Below are positions 10,631 to 51,158 of a DNA stretch of 64,000 bases, one piece after another; positions within the stretch are counted from its first letter, which is position 1, and every line of letters begins with the position of its first letter. A program made the position numbers and the translations under genes. A model generated the notes under the pieces. It was not told the DNA's origin, did not search any database, and saw nothing but the letters and a program-made list of their open reading frames with translations. Origin of the DNA: Owenia fusiformis (lineage: Eukaryota > Annelida > Polychaeta > Sabellida > Oweniidae); contig CAIIXF020000006.1 in assembly GCA_903813345.2 (NCBI GenBank), positions 1,736,001 through 1,800,000 on the forward strand. The letters run 5' to 3'.

Positions 10631-11410
10631 AGCAGTTATGACGCTATAGTCTGCACGCACTATATCATGTTTTAAATAAATGACAATTGTTGTTAATTTA
10701 TTCGTACATAATAATTGTAGATTTATGAGGAAAATCCTGTTCATTGCAGTTTTCAAATCATCTACTCACATAAGGAATCTTCATCTGTTTGTAAATAAAA
10801 GTCATCTTTAGAAGTTTTTGCAAGCAATATTTCTGTCCCAGCCAATGCGGCTTATGAGAGACGATACATATACAGTTGTACAATAAGTACAATATACGCA
10901 TACAATACGTACAGTTCTATAATAATATATAGATGAACTAAAATAAATAGATATTATTATGCAAAACATATGTTATTGTAACAGTGATTAAGCAACAACT
11001 TATTTGAAAAAGCTTAACAAGTATCAAATATTCATAACTGATTTCATAACTTGTACATAGCAAGATAGCAGGACCATCTGAGTAAAAACCAATAAAAATC
11101 AATATGTCCATACTAATTACTATCTAATTCTTCCAGATATGATGTTCACATAAATAACTTTCATCGGCAATGACGGTTGTGAAACGTTACTTGATTGATG
11201 CAAATAGATAGCATGCCTTTTGTTAGAGAACACTGAACGACTCTCAACCTCACAAGCAAGCTATAGGGCAGATAAAACGGATTGTTCAATAGTTCCGATA
11301 GAGCGATAGTGAGATAGAGGTACATATATGTACATTGTAAAAGTTATCTGCATGGTATGCGCGCAGAAAAAGCAGTTTGTATGGAATAAAAACATTTAAT
11401 TGTCGGCAAT
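10631..11410 (+). other. 5' flank of the alpha-mannosidase gene
   Basis: No repeat is recognised. It should contain the promoter and 5' UTR of the downstream gene. I see no convincing TATA box or initiator. The start codon context is CAATATGA, neither strong nor unusual. Confidence 0.4.
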
Positions 11411-14400
11411 ATGAAGTTGGCATTACGACTGACACTTGCGATAGTTATTTCTACAAGTTCACTAATTTACATTCTTATCTACATTTCGAACAAATCTACA
11501 ACTAAACAACGTGTCTTGACACACTTGGTTCACCGAATTGATAAGACTAGAGAAAGAGCGAAATATGAGACTTTACGTGAAAGTATGCCCAAAAAGGATG
11601 AAGGTCAAGCTGCTGGAACGGATGCCAACAATGGGGCATTGCCGCTTCCAAAGGCTGATGCCGATGTATACACGCAAGACGTATTCGATTACGTCAATGA
11701 AAATTACAGTGAACGATATGACACGCTCCCAAATGATATGCATAAGCTTGAGACCAGAAAGGATAGGCTTAACGTCTTTATAATACCTCATTCTCACGTT
11801 GACCCCGGGTGGCTGCAGACGGTGGATGAATATTACACAGAGTCAGTGCATGACATACTTACAAATGCTGTACTCGCATTAACTGACCATCCGAAAATGA
11901 AGTTTATGTGGGCAGAAACAGTTTTCCTTAAGAAATGGTGGGATGCCTTGACTTTTAACAACATGGATGATGTCAAGGTTAAGTTTCGTAAACTTCTGAA
12001 AGATAAACGTTTTGAGATTGTGATGGGAAGTTGGGTCATGCCAGACGAGGCAAGTACCCATTATTATTCTATAATTGACCAAATGGTGGAAGGTCACCAA
12101 TGGTTGGAACACAACCTTGGTGTTAAGCCTCAATACACGTGGTCCATAGACCCTTTTGGACATTCCTCGGCGTTCCCTTTCTTTCTTAAAGCAGCAGGTT
12201 TCAGAGGAATGGCAATATCGAGAATACATTCGGGGGTGAAACGAAAATTAGCTCTTGATAAGAGTCTAGAATTCCACTGGAGACAAACTTGGGATCAAAT
12301 GGGCCAGCACGACTTGTTCTGTCACGTTCTAGCTGGAAGTACGTATGTGACTGGAGATTCTTGTGGTATAGACCCAAAGGTGTGTCAAGAGTTTGATTTT
12401 TCAGCGGGAGGAACCCCATGGGGTCAAAACCCGATCCAAATCACAAATTCAACGATAGCTGAGCAAGCAGATATCTTATACAGGCAATATATGTTAAAGA
12501 GTGACTTATTCCGAACAAGAAATATATTCAACCTTGTTGGGCATGACTTTAGGTATCGCAAAATGGAAAATTATGAAGACGTTTTCCGAAATTTCCAAAG
12601 GTTGATTGAATACATGAACAATAATGAAACAATGAACGTTCATATTGAATTTGGCACTCTTGGTGATTATTTCAATAAGGTAGATGATGATCTAGAACAA
12701 ACTAAAATGCCTCATTTAATTGGGGATTTCTTTCCATACGTAATGTCCACAAGACCGTCTCAAAATGATTACTGGACTGGCTATTTCACTACTCGTCCTT
12801 TTGATAAATACTTAGGAAGGGAATTACAGTCAATGGTAAGGACGGCAGAAATTCTGAACACATTCTCTGCTCTGAGAATCAAGCAACTTAGTGCACCTCA
12901 TGATGATCATGAGGCACACGTGATTGGATCCCTAAGAGCCTTGGCCATCGCTCATGAGGAACTGGGTGTTTATCAACATCATGATGCAATTACAGGTACA
13001 GAGGTCAGGCACGTAGCAAAGGACTACGAAAAACGTATGATGAAAGGACTACAAAGCTGTTACAATGTCATTAGAAAATCGTTTGCTATTCTTAACCCAG
13101 AGACTAATGGTATCGCGTTCGATTTAGATAACGTGAGAGACGAGGATGATATGCAAATTGCTAAAGCCATAATTGGAATCACTAAAGAGAGACGTGTGAC
13201 TGTTTTCAATCCTATTGCAAAGAGAGTTCAAACTGTTGCTCGTTTTCTTATAATACATCCTAATGTTGACGTTTATGACATAAATGGATATAAAGTCGAC
13301 GCCCAGATCAACCCTGTGTGGCGAGATAATGCAGTTTTCATTGACCGTTATGAGCTCATTTTCGGGGTAACCGTTCCAGCATTTGGAACTAGCACTTACA
13401 CTCTTAAAGAAAAGAATGGTGCGGTCAAATTTGCAGAAATATTAACCAGTGATGTAGAAAGTAAAGTCTTCACGGTAAAACCATTAGGCAAGAATGACAT
13501 CCATGTCATGAACTCATTCATGGAGGCTAAATTTTCAGCTATAAATGGTGATTTGTTAGGAGTCAAACAGGAAGGAGACAATCATAAGATACACACATCG
13601 TTTGTTTCTTACCATAGCGGCCAAGGAGGAGCATATGTATTTAAACCAAGGGGGAAATCTGATCAAAAGCTGTTCAGTTCTCAGAAGCCAATCGTCAGAG
13701 TAATAAAAGGTGAGATTGTGACTGAAGTACATACGTTATATGATGGGCTATCAAGAGTGGCCATCATACACCATACAGGGGAAGATATACAGAGAGCCAT
13801 AACAATACACAACTCTATCGACATACGACACTTTCCTGAAAAGGACAGACGGAACATTGAAGTCATGATGGAAATAAAGTCAAATGTTTCTAACAAGGAT
13901 GGACTATTTTATTCTGATGCAAATGGACTACAAATGAGTGAACGAAAGAATAATCCTAAAATTGCTGTCAATGGAAACTTCTATCCTATGACATCAATGG
14001 TATACTTAGAATCTCAAAGGACAAGATTGACTATATCGTCTGCTCAACCATTAGGGGTTGCCAATTTGAAATCAGGGGAATTGCAGATAGGGCTCGACAG
14101 AATGACAACAGCGGATGACGGTAAAGGAATGAACCAAGCCGTCGACGATAACAAAGTCACTCTTAGCAGATTTATGATCTATGTCGAGAAACGGAGATCT
14201 CCACATGATCAACGAACTGTATCGACTCCAAGTGCAGTTGCGATTTCTCTACAAAATATTTTAAATAATCCATTAGTTCAGTTCATATATGAAGATGATT
14301 CGGGAAGTAATAGCGAATTCAAGGACTTTAGTTTAATTCAAACGCCTCTTCCATGCCACATAAACGTTGTCTCAATAAGAGGTTTATTTAATAAATCTTC

Positions 14401-14662
14401 CAACCATTCCACTGTGTCTGATATTGGACTGACGCTTCATGCTCAGGGATATGATAACAACATAGGTAATAAATCATCAACTATATGTAAACAGTATAGT
14501 AACAAATTCAACATGGAAAATATCTTTGGAAAGACAGCGAAACTATCTACGATTAAAGAAACAACGTTATCATTCATGCATATCAAGCGTGATATTAGTG
14601 TAAACGATAATTTGGATATACGTCCAATGGAGCTGAAATCCTTTAAGATAGCACTGGAATGA
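11411..14662 (+). CDS. MAN2A1: Golgi alpha-mannosidase II (GH38), intronless
   Basis: The 1083-residue open frame has no introns. Residues 3-25 form an uncleaved signal anchor after a very short cytoplasmic tail (type II Golgi topology), followed by a stem to about residue 115. The GH38 catalytic domain starts with HSHVDPGWLQT (H129 and D131 are zinc ligands by family knowledge). It continues with WSIDPFGHS (D247 is the expected nucleophile), YWTGYFTTRP near 454-463, and YQHHDAITGT at 521-530, which supplies the last zinc histidine. The middle and C-terminal beta domains are complete, and the length is close to the family's usual 1100-1150. The enzyme removes two mannoses from GlcNAcMan5GlcNAc2 during complex N-glycan maturation. 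The membrane anchor argues against the lysosomal homologue. Vertebrates have two copies (MAN2A1, MAN2A2); this gene could correspond to either. The absence of introns, unlike every neighbour, suggests a retrocopy or intron loss. The frame is intact, so it is likely functional. Confidence 0.95.
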   Translation: MKLALRLTLAIVISTSSLIYILIYISNKSTTKQRVLTHLVHRIDKTRERAKYETLRESMPKKDEGQAAGTDANNGALPLPKADADVYTQDVFDYVNENYSERYDTLPNDMHKLETRKDRLNVFIIPHSHVDPGWLQTVDEYYTESVHDILTNAVLALTDHPKMKFMWAETVFLKKWWDALTFNNMDDVKVKFRKLLKDKRFEIVMGSWVMPDEASTHYYSIIDQMVEGHQWLEHNLGVKPQYTWSIDPFGHSSAFPFFLKAAGFRGMAISRIHSGVKRKLALDKSLEFHWRQTWDQMGQHDLFCHVLAGSTYVTGDSCGIDPKVCQEFDFSAGGTPWGQNPIQITNSTIAEQADILYRQYMLKSDLFRTRNIFNLVGHDFRYRKMENYEDVFRNFQRLIEYMNNNETMNVHIEFGTLGDYFNKVDDDLEQTKMPHLIGDFFPYVMSTRPSQNDYWTGYFTTRPFDKYLGRELQSMVRTAEILNTFSALRIKQLSAPHDDHEAHVIGSLRALAIAHEELGVYQHHDAITGTEVRHVAKDYEKRMMKGLQSCYNVIRKSFAILNPETNGIAFDLDNVRDEDDMQIAKAIIGITKERRVTVFNPIAKRVQTVARFLIIHPNVDVYDINGYKVDAQINPVWRDNAVFIDRYELIFGVTVPAFGTSTYTLKEKNGAVKFAEILTSDVESKVFTVKPLGKNDIHVMNSFMEAKFSAINGDLLGVKQEGDNHKIHTSFVSYHSGQGGAYVFKPRGKSDQKLFSSQKPIVRVIKGEIVTEVHTLYDGLSRVAIIHHTGEDIQRAITIHNSIDIRHFPEKDRRNIEVMMEIKSNVSNKDGLFYSDANGLQMSERKNNPKIAVNGNFYPMTSMVYLESQRTRLTISSAQPLGVANLKSGELQIGLDRMTTADDGKGMNQAVDDNKVTLSRFMIYVEKRRSPHDQRTVSTPSAVAISLQNILNNPLVQFIYEDDSGSNSEFKDFSLIQTPLPCHINVVSIRGLFNKSSNHSTVSDIGLTLHAQGYDNNIGNKSSTICKQYSNKFNMENIFGKTAKLSTIKETTLSFMHIKRDISVNDNLDIRPMELKSFKIALE

Positions 14663-22667: not shown

Positions 22668-22841
22668 ATGGCAATGAAGCAGCAGTTGACGCTTTGGAGT
22701 GAAGGAGTTGATTTACATGAAGCGAATAACTTTGACAGTGGACTAGAAAAGTGGAAACAAATTCAAAATCCAAGTGCCAAAATTTTATTCAACATTGCAA
22801 ATGTTCAAATTCAGTTTAAGCAGCTTGAGCAAGCAGCTGAG
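22668..22841 (+). CDS. NCF2: p67phox-like exon 1
   Basis: 58 codons starting at the ATG of AAGATGG and ending in AE before a GTGAGT donor (phase 0). It encodes TPR1 with the family signature LW-x-EGV and FNIANVQ. Confidence 0.92.
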
Positions 22842-25800
22842 GTGAGTCTGAGTTTTTTGCATTGCCCCTCGGAAAAAGTGTCAATTGATAGTCACTTGTA
22901 CCATGGTCTTTCGATGTGGATTTGGTGAAAATGGGTCGGGATCAAGAGGTTAATTTCAGAAGGAATATTGATATAATATCCACATTTGACTTTTCAAAGC
23001 CTTTCTTCAATACTTTCGAAATCATACAGCATCAGTGACACACAGGGATATGGGATGATGTGTTTTGTATTGATAAGGTACAGTATGCTTGCTTGGATCT
23101 CATTATTAAGGAGTTGCATCACAGAATCACGAAATGACAAGTGTTATGCGAAAATGCGCCACCATTTCATTTTCTACATAATAGGTAGAACCATGGAAGA
23201 TAAGCCTAGTCGGGGGCCACAAGATATATCAGATAAGAGGCCCAGACTAGGTTTAACTTGTTGAACTTGGGGAGAAATGAAGGTGAGCAATACCTTTTGG
23301 GTATATCCCATATACGTATACGGTTGTAATTAATGCATGTAATCATGGAAGGCAGACCCAGGAACCCCCTCCTTATATGAGCCCTGTTTTCTCGTGCCCT
23401 ATGCACTCATACATAGTCATACAAGTACACACCAAAGCCATTTGTACAAGTTGTGGACCACTCAGTCAATCAGTGATATTTGAGCTGTAATTAGAGAATA
23501 TACAATGATGAACAAATGGGACAAGTATTACGTATAATAACTCACAATAAATGTGTCATTATGACAGTTGTTTCTTTGATTGCTCAGATGATCGCCAACC
23601 ATGCGATTTTTCAAAGATTTCATATCAAGTGATTCTATTCGCAGATCACTCGGTAGGTTTAAAATGAGACGCTTTAGGTTTCATTGTGAAATATGAAAAG
23701 CCCAGCTGACTTAACGGGAAAATGCTTGCCTGCCATGTGGTCTCTATAACTACATCAATAAAGCAATTATAATTGTCAGTTTGCATGACAATGTGAAAAT
23801 GATATTTGCCCAAATATCGCATTTGATGGAAAGGTCCGCTTTTAATTATTTATTATAAACTTTGACCTAATTTATGCATTTAGTCTATTTTCAAATAAAA
23901 CCCCTGATAATGTTGTGTTGTATATATTATATATTTGTATTTTAGAGTAGGAATATTGTATTTTAGAGTCTCAGTGGATGTGTCGAGAAAGATGAACATT
24001 TAGCTGTGGGTTATTTCCTGAGGGGTGTGGTATATTTCAAGACAAACAGGTAAAAAGAATTGTAGTCTCTAGGTTCAGTTATAATATATAGGCTTTTATT
24101 AGATTTGAGTATGACTGCATCAAGCCCTTTGCTGGTCTTGCATCAAGCCCTCTTTTAGTATGGCATCAAGCCCTCTGTAAGTATTGTGTCAAGTCCTCAG
24201 TTAGTATTGAGTCAAGCTCTCTGTTAGTATTGCACCAAGCCCTTTGTTAATATTGCACCAGGCCCTTTGTTAGTATTACGACAAGCCCTTTGTAACTATT
24301 GCGTCAAGCCCTCTGTTAGTATTATATCAAGCCGTCTGAGTATTACATCAAACCCTCTGTTAGTATTACGTCAAGCCCTCTGTTAGTACTGCATCAAATC
24401 CTCTGTTACTCTGTTAGTATTGCATTAAGATCAAGCCCTGTGTTAATATTGCATCAAACCCTCTATCAGTATTGCATTAAGTTCAAGCCCTCTGTTAGTA
24501 TTGCATCAAATCCTCTGTTAGTTTTATATCAAGTGTGCCCTCCTGCAATTTTCTCAAACACAGATTCAGAGGCTACATATATAGCAGGGGGAGTTCTGAC
24601 TTGAACTACTATTACTCTGTTTCATTCAGTGTTATAAAGAGCATATTGAATGTTGTTTGATTAAGAGCATTTATACATTTATGACAAATTCCACATTTAA
24701 CTATTGTACAATGAGTCACAAAAGCAGTACTAAATAACTTTAATAACAATGAAGTGCTTGAAATACTCCAACATAAATGCACTGTTGGGTCAGACTCATA
24801 ATATATAAACTTACACTGAAATAGATTACTCAGTAATCAGGGCTTAATTATGCATAATTCCAGTGAATTTATAGACATGAATATAATTCAGAGTTGATGT
24901 TATATACAGCAAAACATAACACTTGAATGCTCATCTAAATAAACCTCTATAATTTATACACTTTTAATGGGACCCATTTTATCCCCCCCCCCATTTGGTG
25001 TCATGTTATATCTGTATTTGAAAGATGAATGACCCCATAGCACTCACATATTGAGTCCCACAATTATTCATCTTATAGGGGTTTTACTGTACAAATACAA
25101 TGTACATTTATTTTTATGTTTTGTTAAGAGGCTTTGCAATGCAATCAGATTTGTCCACTTAATTTTTGTTACCTATATAAATTCTATTTCGTGACTTTTC
25201 TGTCCATGCAAACATTTACATTCTTATTTCTGCTAACTCATTCCAAGTACTAATATATTGTGACTCAACATTTTGCATTGTACATTGAGATTTGGTACTC
25301 GCCAGTTAAATGCTTATGTTTTTATATGTGATATTATTCACTATTTTCGGTATTTTGTGATTATTGTAAATGCCCAGGTATAAATGTAGCTGAATCATCT
25401 GAGCATTTTCTGTGTTTGTGCCTAAGTTTATCACACGAAGGCAAATTGCATATATATAATAGGATTTATTTGTACTGATGCCCTTTTAAGGCCAAACGTA
25501 CATCCAACATACAATTTTCATTGACAGTAAAAACAGCAATAAAGTAAAGAAAATAGGATTACATTCTTCAAATGACATATGAAATGTTACTTTGATATAA
25601 GAATCCTATCTCTACCAATCATTATAACTATCTAGAGTCCATTTCACTGCTTCATTGCATCAGTAGAATGGCAAAAATAAGAAATTGGGAGACCATTGTG
25701 CAATAATATATGGAAAAGTATATTCATAATGTACATGAATGACATTTGTATATTTCAGATTTTTTAGTTTTTTGTGCAATAAGCCTGTGCCGTCTTGTAA

Positions 25801-28800
25801 TTCGAAGAATTTCAGCCATGTTAATCTTATTGAAAATAACATGGCAGAGAAGCATCCAAATATAAGAGGCCACACTCTTTATAAGCCAAACTAGAAGCAA
25901 TCCAAGATATACAAATGTCATTCATGTACAATAGAATTATAGTTTTCTATATTTTATTGCAAAATGATATTTTGATTTCTTATTTTTTAGCTTTTACTGA
26001 CGCAGTTAAACGGTGAAATGGACTCTAGGCCTTAGAAAACGTTAAATGAAATGATTCCTTTTCATTTATGAAATCTATTAAATGCACTTTCGATTTCCAA
26101 TTGAATGTCAAAGTGCTCTAATAACGAAAGTGAAAGTGTTTGGCCGTTGTCAGAAATCCCCCCAAAACAAATGTCATAATTGCTGGAATTACACCCAAAA
26201 AAATGCTAAAAGCGCTTTAGTGAAAAGCGCTTTAAAAAATCACCATCCTGATTACACCAACATTTATAAAGCGCCTTTGAATTTTTATTTTGAAACTACA
26301 CGTCATTTCTAAAATGCTTTTCGTGCACTTTTAATGATGAAGATATGGAGAATATCCAGCAGATGTATACATCTACAATAAATGTATTCTTTTAGCATCT
26401 AAGAGAAAGCGTAACTGAGACTTGCCAGTGATGTGAACTTACTTTCAATTTTTGCGATATAATTAAATGACCTATTGCATTTTTAGGTCCCATCCATCAT
26501 TTCCAGTATTTTTGCGGTGGCCCATATGTGTAGCATTTGAAATACGCTTTTGAGAAGTGCTTTTGTAAAACGGCAATCGTGATTACATTTTTTTTTTGGG
26601 TTAAAACCTTAGGCACCTTTCTAAAACACATGGTGTAATTCCAGCAAATGAATGTCTCCATATCCTCCAACGTATATTATTACCACCTTACTACAGACCT
26701 GTTCTAGGGGTATTAGTGCTAGTTTCGACCTGAGCAGTATGTGACGTCATAGTGGCGGGGCATATTTTTCCCCGGGAAATTAGATTTCGCTCAGTTCTTG
26801 TTATTTCAACCCTGGGCATTACCGGTGGTAATAATACTAATAATGTCATTTCTGCAGGCAATATTATACAAATAGCGACTGCCATTGAGGGTAACAGTGT
26901 AAATTATTTCTCGGTGGGAATATCCTCTAAAATGTACTATTCCCGAAGCTGCAGGCTTGTAGAGGATAATCCCAAGGAGAAATCATTTACACTATTGCTC
27001 GAAATTAGGCTGACTCACTATTTGTTTTATTATATACCCTATACTGACTCTTGTCCGGTTACCTCCGCGAAGGCCAAAAGGGCTTACAAAGCCCCCTCCC
27101 CAGGTCTATTGTTAGCATTATAAGCTGTGACGTCATAATATGCTTAACAGAATTTTTTCCTAAGAAATTTCTGAGACTCTCACTTGACAAATTCAATCGC
27201 GTTTAACACAAGAAATAGATTATCATAACACTTGAAATTACACAGACGTTGCTTATATTGTATCGTTCACGCACGTCTGTCATGGTGAACGGAGTTGATT
27301 TGCCCAAAAATGGCAATGTTATTGAATTTGATTTAAGTCTCATATGTTCTGAAAATTGCAAAAAGTAGGGGTCTCCTACTCCATCAATTTTTTTTAATTT
27401 TACATTTTCTTCATATGGAATGAAAGATGAATATCCACTCTAAATGTATAAGTAATGAAAAGTATTATACATACATGGTAACATAATGTATTTTTACTTT
27501 AAAGGTCACATATTTTCAGGTAATAATGTTCCTTAAAGGTATGTCATTTCAATACATCCTTGAAAATGAGTAAATAGACAAGTAAAAGACTCAAAACCAG
27601 TCAACCCATATAAGTACCCATTATTATACCTTATTTCTTGCTTTAGATATACATAGTTAAAAAAGACTTCCACTGCTGTGAATATGACAGACACGTGTTT
27701 CATATTTTTGCGTGTGAAGAGATAAATAACCAATAAAACATATCAAAATTTTAATCACTTTTTATCATATAGTCTCATATACAGGTTTTTAATATGGTTT
27801 GAATACATGTCGACTAAAACATATAATACTTAGGAAGCTTACATACTTACATGCATAATACAAAATGGATAGGTTCAAAAAGTAATTCATGTCAAAAATT
27901 GTTCTAACATTGTCACATTAGATTTTTAAAAAGCAGATTTTTCAGTGACTAACTTTTTCAGATGAAAATTGAAATGGCTGATAATTATTATATTGCCCAT
28001 TTTTGGATAGGTCATTTGTTTTTATATGCATAATAAATTATATATAAATTGATAAATTGCTCATAACAAAAGCTGATCCAAGAGCCCATGCTTAACTCAT
28101 TATCCCAACGAACGAAGTTCGGTAGGGATATAGTGAAGCCCTCCGTCCGTCCGTCAGTCCGTCAGTCCGTCAGTCTGTCAGTCCGTCAGTCAGTCAGTCC
28201 GTCCGTCCGTCCGTCCGGAAGATAACTCAAATATTAGTTGACGGATTTTCTTCATATTTGGTGGAAAGATGTATATTGATGAATAGTTTTACGCAAAAAA
28301 AAAATTTTCAAGATGGCCGCCGCTTTAAAAATGACGGGACTTTTTCGCAAAAATCATAAATTTTTCATTCTAAACCAAAGTAATTAATATTATTGTTTGA
28401 AATTTTGGTAGTATATTCGCAACATCTATCCATTTCATATATATTCCGTGTTTTTCATCCTGACCCCCAGGGGCCGTGTATGGGGGGTCAGGAAAACAGA
28501 CATTTTCGCTAATTTTTAGATCTTTCTTAAGTATAGCTTTATTATACTCAAATGAAAGGTAATTAAGAGTAGATTGCAAATATTGTATCTTTTTTCTGAT
28601 TCGAGCCTCGTAAAATTCAAAATGGCCGTCTAATGTACGATTTCACAATAATTTTTCGATCCCTTCAAAGTATAGCTATATAATACTCAAATTGAAGGAA
28701 TTCTGGAGTAGATCACAATTATGGTATTATTTTTCAGATTTGTACCTCAGAAAATTCAAAATGGCTGCTTTGCAGGAATTCGCAATTCTAAAATCTAAAT

Positions 28801-31800
28801 TTTTCAATTTAAACCAAAGTAATGAGTATAATTGATTGGAATTCGGTAATTGATATTTTGTTCGTTGGGATTTGCTACTCCGCGGAGTTGCCGTTATCTA
28901 GTTTAATATGAGTCCCTCACTAGCTCTGAGGAGGCATCATCCAAACAATATAAGTTTAGTTTAGTACAAGCCCATGTTACTCCCCCACTACATACCTCCC
29001 CACTTCTGGTGGTGAAATAGATAAGGAGATTCAGAGATTTGAAGCTAAATCCAGTTCTATTTTCCAGATTTCCTGATGCACTTAGGGACTTTGAGGCAGC
29101 ACACAAAAAGCTTAGAGAGAAAGATGTTATTGACTACAAACAGTTAGGGCTAAGACATAAGCTGTACGCCTGCGAATGTCTCCACAACCAAGCTCTAGTT
29201 CATCTGTACCAGCAAGATGTTGCTAAGGCTAGGCAACTTTTGGGTAATGCCTGGGTCACATTTGCTCCGATTAATCAGCCGGCGCCTAGCCGATTGCAGT
29301 ATTCTGTTCAAATCTGATTTCAACTTGCTCCGAATTGACTATTTTTTTAAGTTCTCAGGGGCTCACATCAGACCTCAAGACCTGAGATTTGACCCTCAAT
29401 TTTGAACAAAATACTCAATCGGCCAGGCGCATGGAACTACAATAAGTGTAAAATATTTTCACAAATAAAATTGTGTTCAGTGTGTTTAAAGCTTGTAGAC
29501 AATGCTAAGTACAAATGTATTATTATAATGTTTATAGGTGAAGCCCAGAACTTGAAAGTTGAAAAGAAGCATAGTGTTTGTGATACTGCACTCTCCAAAG
29601 CAGCTGTGAGTACATTGTTCATAGCTATTTGGGTTTTAACCTACTAGCCCGAATTGCATAACACTCTAATTCTGACCACCTAACTTCCTTGATATTGTAC
29701 AATTACTGTAAGAAGTTTATGAAGTTGTTATGTGCAAATGCTTGTTTATTGACAAAGATATATTTTAAATTTTCATTGTTAGTGACGATTTCAGGATAAA
29801 AGATGATTATCATCTCACCACTCAATTTTCCCTAGCAACAGTGAAATACAACAAAAGGAGTGGGTGATCCCTAACAACTGTCACATTTGTGATTATGATC
29901 TGTCCTCTTCTTGTAGAACAATGAGGCATTCCCTCTTATAGAGATACCATCAGACGCCCTCTTCAAGCCTCCAAAGTCAGTCATCAACAATATGGCCAAG
30001 AAAGACTACCTTGGGAAGGCAAAGGTATAACTTCAGTTCTAAACAATTCTTTTGCATTTGTTTCATTGTCCCTACAGATAAGTTGTTTGTTTCATAAAAA
30101 AACATTTTATTTATGCTGATTTGTGTTTTCATTTAATTTTTACTGAAAGACACAGCATTGCTGAACAAAAGGTAAACTTGTCCTTGAGCCATATAGTAAT
30201 ATCACTACTTGTATGTATTTATTTCTGCTGACTTTTTCACAAAGTCGATTCTGTTTTTCTCCAGTATTGAATTTTATTTTAATTTTTTAAGAATTCTTAA
30301 ATTATAGGTGGTGTCTGTATTAGAAGAAGACAATGCATTCGTAGGATTTTCTGGTCCTAAGATTCTTTTGAAGAAGCAGAGATCTGTTCCAGCTAACATT
30401 ACAGAAGAGGTAGTCATAGTAACCAGCACTGGCCGTCATAGTAACCATGGGCATCCAATATCTATTGAAATCCCATGTAGTAACCAACACTGGTCGTTAT
30501 ACTAATCAAAATTGATTGCCATGGTAACCACCACTGTAAAATCCATTAAACACAAGGAACATCCCCAGATCCCTATTGCTGGTGTAATCATGTTTACCTT
30601 GCTAATATGTCATGCCCTTTGTGGTGTTTTTTGGTTGTTGCTACAACCAAAAAACACCCTGTGTTTGTCGACCATGATTTGGTGATTTAAGGTTTTCATT
30701 TGTAGAACCCAAAGGATGGCTGGTGGCTGAGGAACCCATCTCCCTACACTCCCCATCAATCTGTATTTATGTTTATATCAAAAATGAAGTTGAAATGACA
30801 ACCACTAATGGTTAGACTTACACAGCAGGTTTAATTGCTACGAAGCGTTTTGACAAAATCCTCCATTATTTTTCCTAAATGCTTCATTCAGAAGCAATTT
30901 AGCCCTGCTGTGAATGTTGACCCTCCAAGCACACCTTTATAACTTTACAAATACTGTGTATGTGAACACCATGAAAATATTAGCACATGTAGACCCATTA
31001 ATACATTAGATTAGGATGCAGTTATTGTATGGACTGAACATGAATCCCTAAATTACAAGAAACATATTTCTACTTTTGAAACCCCTAAACAATGTTACTG
31101 TTAGATGTCATATAACTATGCCAACAATTACTGATATTGTCAATATAACTTTCAAAGGTCTACAATCTATAAAGTTGTCCAATTTATTTACAGTAGTATG
31201 CCATTTATTTGAACATAATGTTAAGTTACTTAATATGTAAAACAAATACCCTTAACAAGTTTTGTTTTTAATTCACGCATGGAATTTCCATGTCACAGAA
31301 AAATCATATCAAACATGTTTAACAGAAACTTGCATTTGGAGATTTGGCGTATAGAGCATTGAATAACACGATCCAATCCAACACAGTTCAATTTCTTTCA
31401 AATGTAAAATGAGCTTCTGATTGGTCTAAACAGATCAAAGAAATCTTGTCTCTGAAGAGTACTGCAACAACTTTATATATTTTATTTTGATGCTTCATAC
31501 CCTGAGGAAACTGAGCGAATCAATTCATGGTGTTAAAAATATTTATTTTTATTTGTTGTTTCAGGTCATATCTGCAGTTTGTGAAAATGATCGCTTCTCT
31601 GGCTTTGATGGACCACGCCTTGTAAGTTCATATAAAATCTAATATAATTTCCATTATCATGTGCACCATTCTTCAAATGGGAGTAATATTCTCAATTTAC
31701 CTAAAATATTTTTCAGATGATGTCCGACAGTCAAAAAATCCATTTATTTTCTCATTCTGCCGTATTCTTAAGTTTTTCGCCCATTGTAATATATTTGGCC

Positions 31801-34668
31801 GATGACTTAACTACACATTCTTCCTTTCGTCAGAGAGCTGGGTAGAATCATGTCCAATTACATTTTCTTGTGATTAATCCTCTAAATTCCAAAATGGTGG
31901 ATGATTCTAAAAATCTCATGACATGACAAGTCATTATAGTTTGTAAACTTGACCATCATACTAAAGATTGTTAATTGCATTTATTACATTGTGCGAAATT
32001 ACAATTGTTTAGAACAGTTTGTAAACTGGATTATCACATTGAGGGATTTCAACTTCCTCTAAAAATTGATTTTTTGACTGTCGGACAGAAACTGAAAAAT
32101 ATTTCAACTAAAAATATTCCAATTTCTTCAGCTTTTTATTCCACTTTTAGAAAGTGCTTTATTATCCCAACGAACAAAGTTCGTTAGGGATATAGTGAAG
32201 CCCTCCGTCCGTCTGTCCGTCAGTCAGTCAGTCAGTCAGTCAGTCAGTCAGTCCGTCCGTCCGTCTGTCCGGAAGATAACTCAAATACTAGTTGACAGAT
32301 TTTCTTCATATTTAGTGGAAAGATGTATATTGGTGAATAGTTTTACGCAAAAAAAAATTTTTTCAAGATGGCCGCCGCTTTAAAACTGACGGGACTTTAT
32401 CGCAAAAATCATAAATTTTTCATTCTAAACCAAAGTAATTAATATTATTGTTTGAAATTTCGGTAGTGTATTCACAACATTTATCTTTTTCACATATATT
32501 CCGTGTTTTTCATCCTGACCCCCAGGGGCCATGTATGGGGGGACAGGAAAACAGAAATTTTTGCTAATTTTTAGATCTCTCTGAAGTATAGCTTTATTAT
32601 ACTCAAATGAAAGGCAATTAAGAGTAGATTGCAAATATTGTATCTTTTTTCTGATTCGAGCCTCGTAAAATTCAAAATGGCCGTCTAATGTACGATTTCG
32701 CAATAATTTTTCGATCCCTTCAAAGTATGGCTATATTATACTCAAATTGAAGGAATTTTGGAGTAGATCACAATTATGGTATTATTTTTCAGATTTGTAC
32801 CTCAGAAAATTCAAAATGGCTGCTTTGCAGGAATTCGCAATTCTAAAATCTAATTTTTTCATTTTCAACCAAAGTAATGATTATAATTGATTGGAATTCG
32901 GTAATTGATATTTTGTTCGTTGGGATTTGCTACTCCGCGGAGTTGCCATTATCTAGTTGTAATTGTCCTGTGTTGACGGCCAGGTGGGCAGGAAATTTAA
33001 TTGAGGAATGCAGAAAATTTCCCATCATGCACCCTGACCTTAAATGCTGATGTTTTTATATGTAATATAATCCACTATTTTGTGATTATTGTGTAAATGC
33101 CCGGGTATAAATGTAGCTCAATCATCTAAGCATTTTCTGTGTTCGTGCCTAAGTTTATTACACTAAGGCAAATTGTATATGACAATCTTTAAAAAAGTAT
33201 TCCTTAATTAAAACAATTACTAATACAGACGCATTGACCAATTTTTTTCAAAGTAATCTACAAGTTTAAGGAAAACTGCACATCTGTTTAACTTAAACTT
33301 TTTATGGATGCAAGACCAGACTAGTGCCAAGATCTGATTAGGTTTTGGGCATGCTGGGTAAATTACATGGCAGCCATTTTGCTCTTCAAAGTGCAATATT
33401 TATCACTCTGTCTTGTTTTAAGTTAAATGGATGCAGCCCTCGGTTAATGCCAAATTGATAGAGAAAGTGACACATATCTGAGCATGGTAAATGTTGATGG
33501 AGTTAAGACTGTCTATTGTAGTAATCTTTTGAAGTAATTCAAAATTAGGTTTATTCATTCATTGATACTGTTGTCACAAATGATCCATTAAATCTTCATG
33601 TAATCTATTTCAATAACAGATAGATTACCCTACCATTGCTAATTTGTTACTGAAAGACGATTTAGTAGGGTGAATTGTACTTGGAATGAAATATTGTAAA
33701 AATTTATTTCACAATATTTCATCTAATACACTGATGCTGTCACAAAATCAATAAAACCTTGAAATAATTCATGAGACAAAGTCTTAGATTGACAGTTATT
33801 AATATCATGCCAATGTTTTAAATGAATGATAAAGTTTTTATCATTCTAATTTTATTTAATTATTACAATGTTTGTACTGCTTTCTAAATTATTGATGCAT
33901 TGATTGAATACAACAATAACTCTGTATTTTCAGATTGAAGAAGGGAAAGTTGCTGATAAAATTGGCAATTTTCCACAACTTCCAAAGCGAATTGTAAAGT
34001 CACCAGATCTGACACGAAAACTACTGAATCAAATGAAAGGTCTGATACTAGATAAAGATGAAACAAAAAAGATTGACTCACAAAACACAATTAAGGCGTC
34101 AGACTTAACATTCAGTGGAACACATTCCTTGCCCCGGAATATGTCTGCATCTATTAACAGTTCTTCGTTTGCTAACATTCCTCCACCAGAACCAATGAAA
34201 AGTGATGGCCCTTCACCCCCGACACGTAGACAGCCACCTCCTAGCCCACCATCTTCAAGAACTAGTGGTGTTTACCAAAATGAGCCTTCTGAAACCTATA
34301 CTATGCCTAGACATTCCCCACCTAATGTGCCCGTGTCAACTGTGGCTATAGCTCCAAGTCATAAAGCAAGGAGACCTCCTCCTCCTATACCTGGGGATAC
34401 CCCAGCTCCCTCAGGAGCAAAACCTCCTCTTCCTGGAACAAAACCTGCTCTACCAAGTGAATCTAAGAGTATGGACTCAAAAGTTAACATTCAGCACACT
34501 AATGCCAGTCCTCTACCCCAAGGAAATCCCATCCCAGACTTGCCACCCCCCAGGTCAAGTATGCTTGGGGTAATGGAGGAAGACACCCCACCCCCTGCAA
34601 GACCAACATGCCCCAAACCTTTGTCTAAACCCCCAAGTAGACCCCCACCTAGGGCCCCAGTGCAATAA
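22668..34668 (+). CDS. NCF2: p67phox/NOXA1-like NADPH oxidase activator, 8 exons
   Basis: Eight exons (22668-22841, 23967-24049, 29068-29243, 29538-29605, 29917-30024, 30308-30409, 31565-31621, 33934-34668) join in frame to 500 codons plus stop, all with GT-AG borders. Exons 1-5 give the four-TPR Rac-binding domain, with WSEGVDLHEANNF near residue 10, DEHLAVGYFLRGVVYF near 70 and AKKDYLGKA near 200. All align closely with human p67phox in order and spacing. Exons 6 and 7 each encode one copy of the NOX activation motif (FVGFSGP and FSGFDGP). The last exon is long and proline-rich (RRPPPPIPG, PLPGTKPALP, PPSRPPPRAP) and ends without SH3 or PB1 domains, which human p67phox has. Family role: a cytosolic partner that, with GTP-bound Rac, switches on a membrane NOX enzyme to make superoxide. 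It could be named NOXA1-like instead; the family is certain, the paralogue is not. Confidence 0.9.
22842..23966 (+). other. Intron 1 of the p67phox-like gene
   Basis: No repeat element or nested gene is recognised. ORFs inside (22986-23264 and its minus-strand shadow) have no family features. Confidence 0.6.
23967..24049 (+). CDS. NCF2: p67phox-like exon 2
   Basis: 83 nt after a TTTTAG acceptor, before GTAAAA. It encodes TPR2 with HLAVGYFLRGVVYF, nearly identical in pattern to p67phox HLAVAYFQRG. It ends in phase 2. Confidence 0.92.
24115..24540 (+). repeat. Minisatellite in intron 2
   Basis: About 17 degenerate copies of a 23-26 bp unit of the form GTATTGCATCAAGCCCTCTGTTA. Copies differ at the GCATC/ACGTC/GTGTC positions and some are truncated. 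Confidence 0.9.
24541..25631 (+). other. Intron 2, unassigned AT-rich stretch
   Basis: A stretch near 25310-25460 (TGCTTATGTTTTTATATGTGA through CATTTTCTGTGTTTGTGCCTAAG) is repeated at 33048-33175, so it belongs to a dispersed repeat. Otherwise nothing is recognised. Confidence 0.5.
25632..26028. repeat. Foldback MITE in intron 2, about 400 bp
   Basis: CTAGAGTCCATTTCACTG at the left pairs with CGGTGAAATGGACTCTAG at the right. The arms continue through CATCAGTA, AAAATAAGAAAT and GTACATGAATGACATTTGTA blocks, so the whole segment is a palindrome. Confidence 0.85.
26740..27140. repeat. Composite palindromic repeat with two TGACGTCA sites
   Basis: A hairpin at about 26895-26992 pairs GTAAATTATTTCTCGGTGGG with its near complement before 26992. 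TGACGTCA octamers stand at 26742-26749 and 27128-27135 toward the two ends. The stop-free stretch 26752-27123 is an artefact of the palindrome. The superfamily is unknown. Confidence 0.6.
27141..28098 (+). other. Intron 2, unassigned
   Basis: AT-rich sequence with no gene or complete repeat recognised. The 66-codon minus-strand ORF at 27533-27733 lacks any family signature. Confidence 0.5.
28099..28903 (+). repeat. CGAAC/GTTCG repeat family, copy 1
   Basis: It starts ATTATCCCAACGAACGAAGTTCG, continues with a (CGTC)n run (28139-28216), and ends GCTACTCCGCGGAGTTGCCGTTATCTAGTT. It matches 32161-32958 (same strand) and 44993-45760 (opposite strand) over the full length of about 0.8 kb with only scattered differences. 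The start contains the hairpin CGAACGAAGTTCG and the end contains CTCCGCGGAG. It has no coding capacity. Confidence 0.92.
29068..29243 (+). CDS. NCF2: p67phox-like exon 3
   Basis: 176 nt after TTTTCCAG. It encodes TPR3 and the start of TPR4 with DFEAAHKKLR and YKQLGLRHKLYACECLHNQA, matching p67phox YKILGLQFKLFACEVLYN. The donor at GGTAATG was chosen because it keeps frame with exon 4 and restores the QLL-GEAQ join. Reading on would leave the family alignment. Confidence 0.88.
29538..29605 (+). CDS. NCF2: p67phox-like exon 4
   Basis: 68 nt between TTTATAG and GTGAGT. It encodes the helix after TPR4 (NLKVEKKHSVCDTALSKAA) and ends in phase 0. Confidence 0.82.
29917..30024 (+). CDS. NCF2: p67phox-like exon 5
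   Basis: 36 codons between CTTGTAG and GTATAA. It encodes PLIEIPSDALFKPP and AKKDYLGKAK, the highly conserved stretch just before the activation domain. Confidence 0.92.
30308..30409 (+). CDS. NCF2: p67phox-like exon 6: first activation motif
   Basis: 34 codons between ATTATAG and GTAGTC, phase 0 at both ends. It encodes VVSVLEEDNAFVGFSGPK, corresponding to human p67phox VVASVVDQDSFSGF (residues around 200-212), the segment needed to activate NOX2. A basic tail follows. Confidence 0.9.
30623..30658. repeat. Perfect 16-bp hairpin in intron 6
   Basis: GGTGTTTTTTGGTTGT and ACAACCAAAAAACACC pair perfectly around a 4-nt loop. It is too short for a microRNA precursor; it could be a footprint or a small structural element. 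Confidence 0.85.
30659..31564 (+). other. Intron 6, unassigned
   Basis: No gene or element is recognised. CTGTGT..AGCAATT-like words near 30820-30910 pair loosely, but no clear foldback emerges. Confidence 0.45.
31565..31621 (+). CDS. NCF2: p67phox-like exon 7: second activation motif
   Basis: 19 codons between TTTCAG and GTAAGT, phase 0 at both ends. It encodes VISAVCENDRFSGFDGPRL, an evident paralogue of the start of exon 6. Eight of 19 positions are identical and most others are conservative. It may be used together with exon 6 or skipped without breaking frame. Confidence 0.88.
31690..32130. repeat. Foldback MITE in intron 7
   Basis: AAAATATTTTTCAGATGATG and GTCCGACAGTCAAAAAATC at the left pair with GATTTTTTGACTGTCGGAC and CTGAAAAATATTT at the right. 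It directly precedes a CGAAC/GTTCG repeat copy. Confidence 0.78.
32161..32958 (+). repeat. CGAAC/GTTCG repeat family, copy 2
   Basis: Same structure as 28099-28903: ATTATCCCAACGAACAAAGTTCG start, CAGT/CGTC-rich run at 32206-32272, CTCCGCGGAG near the end, and ATCTAGTT terminus. Same strand as copy 1, 4 kb away in the same gene. Confidence 0.92.
32959..33933 (+). other. Intron 7, distal part
   Basis: 33048-33175 repeats 25310-25460. A short hairpin (TAATCTAT..ATAGATTA) lies near 33602-33628. No gene is seen. Confidence 0.5.
33934..34668 (+). CDS. NCF2: p67phox-like exon 8: proline-rich C-terminus
   Basis: 244 codons after TTTTCAG, ending in TAA. It starts with a charged, helical segment (IEEGKVADKIGNFPQLPKRI), then a Ser/Thr-rich linker. 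Over 130 residues rich in proline follow, with several PxxP clusters of the class-I and class-II SH3-ligand type (RRPPPPIPG, SRPPPRAP). VYQNEP is a Y-x-N motif of the kind SH2 domains bind when phosphorylated. No SH3 or PB1 fold is visible before the stop. Confidence 0.88.
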   Translation: MEEGKVADKIGNFPQLPKRIVKSPDLTRKLLNQMKGLILDKDETKKIDSQNTIKASDLTFSGTHSLPRNMSASINSSSFANIPPPEPMKSDGPSPPTRRQPPPSPPSSRTSGVYQNEPSETYTMPRHSPPNVPVSTVAIAPSHKARRPPPPIPGDTPAPSGAKPPLPGTKPALPSESKSMDSKVNIQHTNASPLPQGNPIPDLPPPRSSMLGVMEEDTPPPARPTCPKPLSKPPSRPPPRAPVQ

Positions 34669-48800: not shown

Positions 48801-51158
48801 ACATATTCAATACTAATACTCAAGGCTGAGTTGCATGGAAGTACTCAATTAGGTCACTCATAGGAAATACTTTCAATACTCAAAGTATGTCATAAAGTAC
48901 TCAACCCATACTCAAATCATAAAACTCACCTGGGATTTATACTCATCAACTAGTGTTTCATATTTTCGCAAACTTGACTTCAATGCTGTAACTTCTGTAT
49001 CAGCCTGAGAAAGCTTATCTTCTATGTTAGCTATAGATGTCTGCAATGTAATAAAATCTGTATTAGCATGAGAAAGCTTATCTTCTATGTTAGCTATAGA
49101 TGTCTGCAATGTAATAAAATCTGTATCAGCCTGAGAAAGCTTGTCTTCTATATTAGCTATAGATGTCTGCAATGTAATAATCTGTATTAGCCTGAGAGAG
49201 CTTGTCTTCTATGTTAGCTATAGATGTCTGCAATATGATAAAATCTGTATCAGCCTGAGAAAGTTTATCTTCTATGTTAGCTATAGATGTCTACAATATA
49301 ATAAAATCTGTATTAGCCTGAGAAAGCTTATCTTCTATGTTAGCTATAGATGTCTGCAATGTAATAAAATCTGTATTAGCCTGAGAGAGCTTGTCTTCTA
49401 TGTTAGCTATAGATGTCTTCAATGTAATAAAATCTGTATTAGCCTGAGAAAGCTTGTCCTCTGTAAGCTAGAAATGTCTACAATGTAATAAAATCTGTAT
49501 TAGCCTGAGAAAGCTTATCTTCTATGTTAGCTATAGATGTCTGCAATGTAATAAAATCTGTATTAGCCTGAGAAAGCTTGTCTTCTATGTTAGCTATAGA
49601 TGTCTACAATGTAATAAAATCTGTATCAGCCTGAGAAAGCTTATCTTCTATGTTAGCTATAGATGTCTACAATGTAATAAAATCTGTATTAGCCTGAGAA
49701 AGCTTATCTTCTATGTTAGCTATAGATGTCTGCAATGTAATAAAATCTGTATTAGCCTGAGAAAGCTTGTCTTCTATGCTAGCTATAGATGTCTGCAATG
49801 TAATAAAATCTTTATTAGCCTGAGAAAGCTTGTCCTCTGTAAGCTAGAGATGTCTGCAATGTAATAAAATCTGTATCAACCTGAGAAAGCTTTCTTCTAT
49901 GTTAGCTATAGATGTCTGCAATATAATAAAATCTGTATCAGCCCGAGAAAGCTTTCTTCTATGATAGCTATAGATGTCTGCAATAAAATAAAATCTGTAT
50001 CAGCCTGAGAAAGCTTGTCTTCTATATTAGCTATAGATGTCTGCAATGTAATAAAATCTGTATTAGCCTGAGAAAGCTTGTCTTCTATGTTAGCTATAGA
50101 TGTCTGCAATGTAATAAAATCTGTATTAGCCTGAGAGAGCTTGTCTTCTATGTTATCTATAGATGTCTACAATGTAATAAAATCTGTATTAGCCTGAGAG
50201 AGCTTGTCTTCTGTAAGCTAGAGATGTCTTCTATAAAATCTGTAATGTAACAAAATCTGGGAGCAGTGATCTGCATCTGCTGCGTTCAAGTATTCTATGT
50301 CAGCTACAGATATATACAGTGACTTTAGCCTGATCCATTCAATGGAGATATTTATGTGTTTTACAATGGTAAGCCTTGTATTTGATGATATATGGTGGGA
50401 AATTTAAATACTTATGTGAAAATTTCAATAAATTCTTTTTTCAAAAGTCACATATTCAAAAAATACTTAAATAATTTTTTTAAAGTGACAAAAAGTTATA
50501 TTTGAATAATTACAAGTACAAGCAAACTACATTTTTGCATGGGGTCTTTAAGGAAGAATTACATACTCTCTCCCCTCTTGGATTAAGCTCATTGATGTAA
50601 AAATGACGTTCACTTCAAAATATGGGGGTTTACCAACCCCTTCCATTTTAGATTTATATTTTGACTCAGTATGTCATTTGTTTTGAGAAGTACATTCGTA
50701 AGACACTCTCTGAGCCTTGAAGATATGAATGAAATTGATACAGAAGTAAGATAATTATTTGTGAACAGTTTGTAGAAATGGAAAAGGTAATTATCATGAT
50801 GGCAATAAGCAAACACTGAGTGAATAATGGTTACATTTGCACTAAAGATGACAAAATTTAGATAAAAATTATTTATTTTATATAACAAAAGGACAACATT
50901 TACATAGTATACTAGCCTTGCCCAAGTCGGTATTTTTTTTACTTATCTGATCTTGAATTATTGGTCATAATAGAAATCAAAATAAGTAGAAGAGACCGAC
51001 TTGGGCAAGGCTAATAGCATACCTTCAGTCGTTCATTTTCTAATTTATGTATTCCAGATTCACTGGTTTTATTATGCAGGTCAGCAGTTAGTCTCTCTAC
51101 TTGACCTTTGTAGTCTTCTTCTGTCCTGTGTAATAGACTCTCTATCTCAGACAAACGG
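42650..51158 (-). CDS. ODF2: ODF2/cenexin, 3' half, 11 exons on the minus strand
   Basis: Eleven exons with GT-AG borders join without frame breaks, from 51023-51158 down to the stop at 42650 (about 446 codons). The product is a continuous coiled coil. Its end (RLEQSHSTNRSMQNYVQFLK and SSYANVFGD) is almost identical to the C-terminus of human ODF2. Upstream matches include KLENERLK, EDKLSQA...DEYKSQ, READEV and LRLQNRLLELEPLPELLK. ODF2/cenexin builds mother-centriole appendages (needed for cilia) and sperm-tail outer dense fibres. All joins are phase 0 except the first exon's 5' border. Two additional coiled-coil exons (48582-48686 and 48005-48109) have no counterpart in the human protein. 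A 45-nt exon (47515-47559) may be alternative. The N-terminal half, about 550 residues in human, was not found in the window; the next gene upstream is on the other strand. Confidence 0.92.
43386..43478 (-). CDS. ODF2: ODF2 exon, coiled coil
   Basis: 31 codons between TTTGCAG and GTATG. Encodes ERAIQSRLLELESQLSQG, matching human ERAAQNKILDLETQLS. Confidence 0.93.
43705..43818 (-). CDS. ODF2: ODF2 exon, coiled coil
   Basis: 38 codons between ATTTAG and GTACTT. Encodes LTRQLETALSETRRLAED, matching human ARQLESAIEDARRQVEQ. Confidence 0.93.
44064..44246 (-). CDS. ODF2: ODF2 exon, coiled coil
   Basis: 61 codons between TTACAG and GTGAGT. Encodes a charged helix with KIHDIQDENRTLKAQLETLD, in the position of the human KHQASQKENKQLSLKVDELE region. 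Confidence 0.92.
44723..44881 (-). CDS. ODF2: ODF2 exon, coiled coil
   Basis: 53 codons between TTTACAG and GTAAGG. Encodes ELEPLPELLKTTELRLQDA and GYEQRNTENAKLIAEL, matching human LQQLPDILKITEAKL and GYERKNIDLT. Confidence 0.94.
44993..45760 (-). repeat. CGAAC/GTTCG repeat family, copy 3
   Basis: Reverse-complement copy of 28099-28903 and 32161-32958, in an ODF2 intron. It begins AACTAGATAACGGCAACTCC and ends GAACTTCGTTCATTGGGATAAT, with a GGACGGAC-rich run at 45672-45722. Confidence 0.92.
45938..46042 (-). CDS. ODF2: ODF2 exon, coiled coil
   Basis: 35 codons between CTACAG and GTGAGT. Encodes MNKSRREADEVSVRLEES, matching human MKTRLEADEVAAQLERC. Confidence 0.93.
46043..47514 (-). other. 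ODF2 intron, nothing recognised
   Basis: AT-rich sequence. Small plus-strand ORFs (46781-47008 and 47173-47379) have no recognisable features. Confidence 0.5.
47515..47559 (-). CDS. ODF2: Possible 45-nt ODF2 micro-exon
   Basis: Between TATGTAG and GTATAC, in frame, encoding LHLPASPLSLSARLK, which is not coiled-coil-like. Both splice sites are reasonable and phase 0 is kept, so it could be an alternative exon. It has no human match that I recall. Confidence 0.45.
48005..48109 (-). CDS. ODF2: ODF2 duplicated coiled-coil exon, copy B
   Basis: 35 codons between AATCAG and GTAGGC, phase 0. Encodes KMKISQAEAELTSLKSSLQH and ends EEYKTE. It is nearly identical to 48582-48686 and homologous to 48930-49040. 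Confidence 0.88.
48582..48686 (-). CDS. ODF2: ODF2 duplicated coiled-coil exon, copy C
   Basis: 35 codons between CATAAG and GTAGGC, phase 0. Encodes KMKISQAEAEMTLLKSSVQH and ends EEYRTE. The acceptor is pyrimidine-poor, so its use needs transcript support. Confidence 0.82.
48930..49040 (-). CDS. ODF2: ODF2 coiled-coil exon, ancestral copy D
   Basis: 37 codons between ACATTGCAG and GTGAGT, phase 0. Encodes IEDKLSQADTEVTALKSSLR and ends DEYKSQ, the direct match of the human MEDKLNQAHLEVQQLKASVK / DNYKSQ segment (37 residues there too). The acceptor lies in the last unit of a 63-bp array, and each upstream unit carries a similar acceptor, so the true 5' border is uncertain. Confidence 0.8.
49041..50275 (-). 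repeat. 63-bp minisatellite derived from an ODF2 exon
   Basis: About 19-20 head-to-tail copies of a 63-bp unit. On the minus strand an intact unit reads QTSIANIEDKLSQADTDFIT plus L: 21 residues, exactly three heptads. The two or three units next to exon 48930-49040 are open in frame. Further upstream many copies carry CAG-to-TAG stops (the CTACAAT variants on the plus strand), 2-3 base deletions or a truncated CTGTAAGCTAGAGATG form. Every unit keeps TTATTACATTGCAG or a variant, resembling the exon's own splice acceptor. Mostly intronic satellite; translation beyond the last units is unlikely. Confidence 0.92.
50276..50912 (-). other. ODF2 intron, nothing recognised
   Basis: AT-rich sequence with no element or exon recognised. 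The minus-strand ORF 50610-50888 shows no family features. Confidence 0.45.
50913..51013. repeat. 101-bp foldback next to an ODF2 splice donor
   Basis: TAGCCTTGCCCAAGTCGGT at the left and its exact reverse complement at the right flank about 63 bp of AT-rich loop. The right end is 8 bp from the splice donor of exon 51023-51158. Confidence 0.88.
51023..51158 (-). CDS. ODF2: ODF2 exon, first one found in the window
   Basis: 136 nt between AATTTCAG and GTATGC. Encodes RLSEIESLLHRTEEDYKGQV and ends KLENERLK, matching human DSLVERLHRQTAEY...KLENERLK. It needs two bases from a preceding exon that I could not find. Confidence 0.9.

What the first reader, a model, noticed from the sequence alone, without database searches (positions are those of the whole stretch)
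30308..31621. Two paralogous activation-domain exons in a p67phox-like gene
Exons 6 and 7 both start in phase 0 with a V(V/I)S(V/A)(L/V)xE motif and continue to F(V/S)GF(S/D)GP. In known p67phox and NOXA1 proteins this NOX-contacting segment occurs once. A tandem copy, presumably by exon duplication, would give one activator two NOX-activating motifs. Alternatively, exon skipping could tune activity, since both exons are multiples of three and phase 0.
Basis: partly seen in the sequence, partly recalled or inferred. Interest (0 to 1): 0.8.

Follow-up and report, generated by a model that had tools for sequence, protein, structure and literature searches.

The report
Doubled activation exon in p67phox gene
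In this animal's p67phox-like gene, the small exon that helps switch on the NOX2-type oxidase appears twice in a row, so the cell may be able to choose between two versions of the switch.

Summary
The gene at 22668-34668 (+) is p67phox/NCF2-like: with either exon it aligns without gaps to human p67phox residues 2-218; no second gene was found. Exons 6 (30308-30409) and 7 (31565-31621) are paralogous: 8 of 19 residues identical, BLOSUM62 score 47 reached by 0 of 200,000 shuffles. Both start, in phase 0 at codon 204, where one human exon starts (c.610-669). So the activation-domain exon has been duplicated in tandem. 'Two complete motifs in one protein' is less supported: the other half of the domain (KDYLGKAK) is single-copy in exon 5, so a transcript has at most one complete human-like domain. 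I think the exons are most likely alternatives tuning one NOX2-like enzyme (0.52); constitutive inclusion of both is the main rival (0.36). Transcripts and other animal genomes were not available, and the reading frame does not force exclusivity. Sea urchin p67phox-like protein already has a second TPR+AD-like set; a doubled AD exon was not found in my searches.

The parts
22668..22841 (+). exon 1 (codons 1-58), start of p67phox-like ORF, MAMKQQLTLWSEGV...
   Evidence: PDB alignment to human p67phox from residue 2; boundaries
23967..24049 (+). exon 2, TPR; ends at coding nt 257, the same place as human c.257
   Evidence: human c.257+1 splice variant listed in PMC7284029
29068..29243 (+). exon 3, TPR, includes R102 aligned with human R102; ends at coding nt 433 (human has a boundary at c.366 instead)
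   Evidence: c.366+1
29538..29605 (+). exon 4; ends at coding nt 501 = human c.501
   Evidence: human c.502-1
29917..30024 (+). exon 5, leads into the activation domain, ends ...AKKDYLGKAK at coding nt 609 = human c.609
   Evidence: human c.609+372_670-655
30308..30409 (+). exon 6, activation-domain copy A (34 aa: 19-aa motif plus 15-aa extension), phase 0/0
31565..31621 (+). exon 7, activation-domain copy B (19 aa), phase 0/0; closer to the human exon in length and sequence
33934..34668 (+). exon 8, proline-rich C-terminus and stop; no SH3 or PB1 detected
30417..30537 (+). three copies (two exact, one with 2 mismatches) of TAGTAACCANCACTGG just downstream of the exon 6 donor; role unknown
   Evidence: 3 matches; 0 of 100 shuffles have at least 3

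Best explanation
The ancestral AD exon (the counterpart of human NCF2 c.610-669) was duplicated in tandem. Both copies have been kept as coding exons and are, I infer, used as alternatives after the shared exon 5. Joining exon 5 to exon 6 or to exon 7 each rebuilds one full activation domain (KDYLGKAK + V204...FxGF) in the human register, giving two forms of one p67phox that drive the genome's NOX2-like oxidase with different strength or regulation. Shown: orthology by sequence, exon homology, phase, register, similarity above neutral drift. Inferred: alternative use and different output.
For: Ungapped alignment to human p67phox 2-218 for both joins: exon 5-7 153.7 bits, exon 5-6 147.9 bits. 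Coding boundaries 257, 501 and 609 equal human c.257, c.501/502 and c.609. Human has a single phase-0 exon of 60 nt here, codons 204-223 (inferred from the deletion notation). The proximal half of the domain is single-copy in exon 5, so only one copy at a time can complete it. No other p67phox-like gene and one clear NOX2-like gene were found, so two forms would tune one enzyme. [quoted passage not shown] Weak support: exon 6 has poorer splice signals than exon 7 (acceptor 2.3 against 10.4, donor -0.3 against 3.3, approximate table).
Against: No transcript evidence. Both exons are multiples of three with GT-AG sites and a 1155-nt intron between them, so nothing in frame or spacing forbids including both. 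Exon 6's signals are not exceptional in this gene: the acceptors of exons 2 (-5.7) and 8 (0.4) score lower and exon 3's donor ties at -0.3. The lengths differ (102 against 57 nt). Exact intronic pairing is at chance level. Exon 6's extension could be a linker between two included motifs. Tandem exon substitutions are called rare in human. No relatives could be examined for conservation of the pair.
Confidence: 0.52

Rival explanations
1. Both exons are constitutively included. Exon 5-6 makes the working activation domain, and exon 7 adds a second, partial NOX-contacting motif 34 residues further on, making a two-site activator.
For: Frame is kept with both in (500 residues and stop); exon 7 has the highest-scoring acceptor in the gene; the two copies are more alike in protein than neutral drift gives; a second TPR+AD-like set exists in sea urchin p67phox-like protein.
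Against: The KDYLGKAK half of the domain is single-copy in exon 5, so exon 7 in this arrangement lacks it. Exon 7, joined to exon 5, matches human slightly better than exon 6 does (5.8 bits), which is weak evidence that exon 7 is or was spliced to exon 5.
Confidence: 0.36
2. One copy (most likely exon 6) is a rarely used or decaying exon, and the gene makes an ordinary single-AD p67phox.
For: Exon 6 has a low-scoring donor and a moderate acceptor and is the less human-like copy.
Against: Open frame over 34 codons, V204 and FxGF kept, and a similarity score not reached in 2 x 2000 neutral drift runs.
Confidence: 0.09
3. The resemblance is chance or convergent; exon 6 or 7 is an unrelated linker.
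For: Short motifs; only 8 of 19 identities.
Against: 0 of 200,000 shuffles; best two of 6823 AG-preceded stretches against the human segment; same phase and same start as the human exon.
Confidence: 0.03

Closest known systems
Human p67phox (NCF2)
   Same: TPR N-terminus, KDYLGKA-V204-FxGF activation domain in the same register, an AD exon starting at codon 204 in phase 0, intron positions c.257, c.501 and c.609
   Different: Human has one exon at this place and vertebrate p67phox has SH3, PB1 and SH3 C-terminal domains; this gene has two AD exons and ends in a proline-rich tail without detected SH3 or PB1. One human boundary, c.366, is not shared (433 here)
Limpet (Lottia gigantea) p67phox-like protein
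   Same: Text reports a TPR domain and an AD-like region (PMC2121648 section 13)
Sea urchin p67phox-like protein
   Same: Carries two AD-like regions in one protein
   Different: [quoted passage not shown] here only the AD exon is repeated and both copies have Val
Mutually exclusive tandem duplicated exons in general
   Same: Adjacent homologous exons, same phase
   Different: Exclusive use not shown; lengths unequal; no enforcing frame and no exact pairing above chance

Membership tests
p67phox / NOX activator (NCF2 family) | TPR N-terminus alignable to human p67phox | tested here: met
   ungapped alignment 2-218, E 3.1e-42 and 5.1e-44; Pfam TPR_2 and TPR_1 above cut-off
p67phox / NOX activator (NCF2 family) | activation domain with valine at human position 204 | tested here: met
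   both exon 6 and exon 7 put V at residue 204 when joined to exon 5; importance of V204 from PMC2121648 section 9
p67phox / NOX activator (NCF2 family) | SH3 and PB1 domains (vertebrate members) | tested here: not met
   no SH3 or PB1 among 12 Pfam families listed up to E 0.1; the two PB1 matches found in the genome lie on C3 and C1. PMC2121648 reports PB1 absent from Ciona and sea urchin p67phox-like proteins and the central SH3 only in vertebrate p67phox, but the C-terminal SH3 present in sea urchin; so this does not exclude an invertebrate-type member
p67phox / NOX activator (NCF2 family) | NOX2-like enzyme and p22phox in the same genome | tested here: met
   NOX2-like exon on C11, best PDB match human NOX2 E 2.3e-19; p22phox model matches 5 places on C3, 3 over cut-off
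p67phox / NOX activator (NCF2 family) | activates a NOX with Rac | not testable with these tools
   needs an assay
Mutually exclusive exon pair | adjacent homologous exons with same phase | tested here: met
Mutually exclusive exon pair | frame, spacing or splice-site type prevents both being included | tested here: not met
   both lengths divisible by 3, 1155-nt intron between, GT-AG sites
Mutually exclusive exon pair | competing intronic RNA pairing | tested here: inconclusive
   longest exact complements at chance level: I5-I6 reached in 19 of 20 shuffles; I6-I7, only the 600 nt next to exon 7 on each side, 12 of 20; I5-I7 57 of 1000. Imperfect pairs bracketing an exon, such as 31526-31544 / 31704-31722, were not tested against shuffles
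Mutually exclusive exon pair | transcripts with one and only one of the two | not testable with these tools
   no RNA data

The most novel reading that the evidence does not exclude
An animal NADPH-oxidase activator carries a splice switch inside its activation domain: two alternative exons swap the V204 half of the domain on an unchanged Rac-binding TPR body, setting how strongly one NOX2-like enzyme is driven, for example in blood cells against other tissue.
Probability: 0.43. Interest if true: 0.68.

Novelty: new variant of a known kind. Interest (0 to 1): 0.5.

Why it matters
p67phox switches on NOX2 through a short segment around V204. A natural pair of alternative segments on one activator body would let the output of that step be compared directly, and would show NOX activation tuned by splicing rather than by a second gene, the route vertebrates took with p67phox and NOXA1.

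Tried and rejected
Searched for relatives of the gene in the bacterial and viral collections in the hope of stray animal DNA: none confirmed. Looked for a matching duplication in the docking partner: the exon aligning with the NIS part of human NOX2 occurs once in the 10 kb examined. Looked for competing RNA structures: the I5-I7 13-nt complement was not reached in 20 shuffles but was in 57 of 1000. Tried to place the organism: COX1 and hemerythrin gave no match though their controls rang; molluscan haemocyanin gave none and its control rang nowhere either. The phylum is undetermined. The sequence around the two exons shows no blastn match between the exon 6 and exon 7 stretches at E up to 1, so the duplication is not recent. 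I considered and rejected chance resemblance.

Limits. The search used a query with exon 7 and did not return exon 6 as a match of its own, so a lone, diverged AD-like exon elsewhere could be missed. The PX search (17 matches) was not followed up, so p47phox was not identified. Of the six NOX places, only one C11 exon and one C10 exon were compared with PDB chains; the NOX5 and DUOX labels for C7, C1 and C9 are by eye from recall, and that the two C11 places belong to one gene is assumed. A weak match at C11:36918633 (E 0.027) was not followed up, so a further NOX gene is not excluded. The oyster paper PMC4892480 (listing) mentions p67phox and was not opened. No structure was predicted. One search timed out. 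One search printed isoform translations with wrong boundaries for exons 2-4; one search supersedes them, and the exon 6/7 statistics do not depend on them. The query lacked exon 2. The splice-site weights are approximate values from recall.

Full report
What was checked. I rebuilt the gene on the + strand of the window. Eight exons, 22668-34668, give an open frame of 500 residues plus stop with both candidate exons in, 481 with exon 6 only, 466 with exon 7 only and 447 with neither. All seven introns are GT-AG.

What the gene is. The N-terminal part aligns with human p67phox (PDB 8wej chain D) over residues 2-218 without a gap, whether exon 5 is joined to exon 7 (E 5.1e-44, 153.7 bits) or to exon 6 (E 3.1e-42, 147.9 bits). 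Of 12 Pfam families listed up to E 0.1 only TPR_2 and TPR_1 pass their cut-offs; the other ten are weaker, mostly TPR-like matches, and none is SH3 or PB1. The protein ends in a proline-rich tail. Kawahara and Lambeth (PMC2121648; I read the outline with abstract, sections 9 and 13, and found passages) report that PB1 is absent from Ciona and sea urchin p67phox-like proteins and describe the limpet protein as having a TPR domain and an AD-like region. A search of the genome with a 222-residue query (exon 7 form) returned 7 matches at E up to 1: six are in this gene and the seventh is a weak hit (E 0.625) on C2. Exon 6 itself was not among them, so this search could miss a lone diverged AD exon.

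The exon pair and its human counterpart. A human CGD patient in PMC7973097 (passages) has on one allele a deletion written c.609+372_670-655 that removes 'exon 6', with the protein change starting at V204; the other allele carries p.Gln169Glu. Activity was null, but p67phox was only a very faint band, so the loss may reflect missing protein as much as a missing domain. From the notation I infer that the human exon spans c.610-669: 60 nt, codons 204-223, phase 0. In the window, coding nucleotide 609 is the last base of exon 5, and both exon 6 and exon 7 begin in phase 0 at codon 204. Boundaries also agree at c.257 and c.501 (variants listed in PMC7284029, passages). One does not: human c.366 against 433 here. 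Both exons are therefore copies of the exon that carries the V204 half of the activation domain. PMC2121648 says that V204 is crucial and that all p67phox and NOXA1 orthologues it examined keep it. Both copies here keep it.

How strong is the resemblance. 8 of 19 residues and 30 of 57 nucleotides are identical. The BLOSUM62 score of 47 was reached in 0 of 200,000 residue shuffles; exon 6 against human scores 20 (242 of 200,000) and exon 7 against human 32 (2 of 200,000). Human residues 219-222 in that comparison are from recall. Among the AG-preceded 19-codon stretches of the window (3295 on +, 3528 on -) the two exons are the best two matches to the human segment, and no third stands out (next best 14). 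Neutral drift of exon 7 and of exon 6 to the same nucleotide distance gave mean scores of 6.6 and 8.0, with 0 of 2000 reaching 47 in each case; identities alone are less striking, 36 and 40 of 2000 reaching 8. blastn finds no match between the exon 6 and exon 7 stretches with their upstream introns, so the event is not recent.

How it most likely works. The activation domain is cut in two by the intron after codon 203: exon 5 supplies KDYLGKAK and the next exon supplies V204...FxGF. Either copy, joined to exon 5, gives one complete domain in the human register. If both are included, exon 6 completes the domain and exon 7 follows ...SVPANITEE without the KDYLGKAK half. This geometry favours alternative use, one domain at a time, over a protein with two equal motifs. 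It is an inference. On an approximate weight table exon 7 has the best acceptor of the gene (10.4) and exon 6 a moderate acceptor (2.3) and a low donor (-0.3); but exons 2 and 8 have lower acceptors (-5.7, 0.4) and exon 3's donor is equally low, so this is weak support. Three copies of a 16-nt repeat (two exact, one with 2 mismatches) sit just downstream of the exon 6 donor and could be regulatory, untested. Against exclusivity: frame and spacing allow both exons, the lengths differ, and exact intronic pairing is at chance level. Of 23 inverted repeat pairs in the stretch 30025-33933 the imperfect ones bracketing an exon were not tested for significance.

The partner. Two NOX-domain searches gave 6 and 7 exon matches. 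A C11 exon is NOX2-like by PDB comparison (E 2.3e-19) and a C10 exon DUOX-like (E 6.9e-29); the rest were labelled by eye. The p22phox model matches five places on C3, three over its cut-off. With one clear NOX2-like gene, the two p67phox forms would act on the same enzyme. A 2026 review (PMC13296129, passages) says the NOX-NIS element is the docking site for p67phox and Rac in the activated structure. Using a human NOX2 C-terminal stretch from recall, the exon aligning with that part occurs once in the 10 kb examined (E 1e-10), so the docking side is not doubled there.

Known or new. In the held literature, p67phox together with 'exon duplication' gave 0 papers. No paper held p67phox with any of four phrases for a second or tandem activation domain. 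Of 86 papers holding at least three of five terms (NCF2, p67phox, alternative splicing, activation domain, mutually exclusive exons) the 20 listed showed nothing of the kind by title and start of abstract. These searches cover open-licence papers only. Tandem duplicated exons spliced as alternatives are a known, though in human rare, kind of event (PMC9741552 abstract), and one group suggests that mutually exclusive splicing may follow directly from tandem duplication (PMC9013439, abstract and passages). The combination is therefore a new variant of known kinds.

What stays open. No transcripts, no other animal sequences and no identity for the organism were available. Whether the pair is alternative or jointly included is a single RNA-seq question.

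Noticed in passing
28099-28907, 32161-32963 and 45714-44987 (minus): Three copies, about 94% identical, of an ~0.8 kb interspersed repeat (the third match covers 737 nt) with a CCCAACGAACGAAGTTCG-like start and a GTCC/GTCA simple repeat; two lie in introns 2 and 7 of the p67phox gene.
   Followed up: partly
30417-30537: Three copies of TAGTAACCANCACTGG (two exact, one with 2 mismatches) just after the exon 6 donor, not expected by chance.
   Followed up: partly
31696-31745 / 32063-32112 and 30623-30638 / 30643-30658: A 50-nt inverted repeat (86%, 317-nt gap) in intron 7 and a perfect 16-nt hairpin in intron 6.
   Followed up: no
6754-8573: Coding-like minisatellite repeats (GPQKLY / APRSYT) on + at 6754-7435 and on - at 8074-8573, that is, an inverted arrangement.
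   Followed up: no
11390-14662: Single uninterrupted 1090-aa ORF that looks like an alpha-mannosidase (name from recall).
   Followed up: no
48912-49864: Tandem repeats encoding LQTSIANIEDKLSQADTDFIT-type coiled coil on the minus strand, with antisense open frames on +.
   Followed up: no
G000:C9:4204200-4207200 and 4214500-4217500 (L011, L012): Two DUOX-type (label by eye) exon sets about 10 kb apart whose listed translations are identical: a very recent tandem duplication or an assembly duplicate.
   Followed up: no
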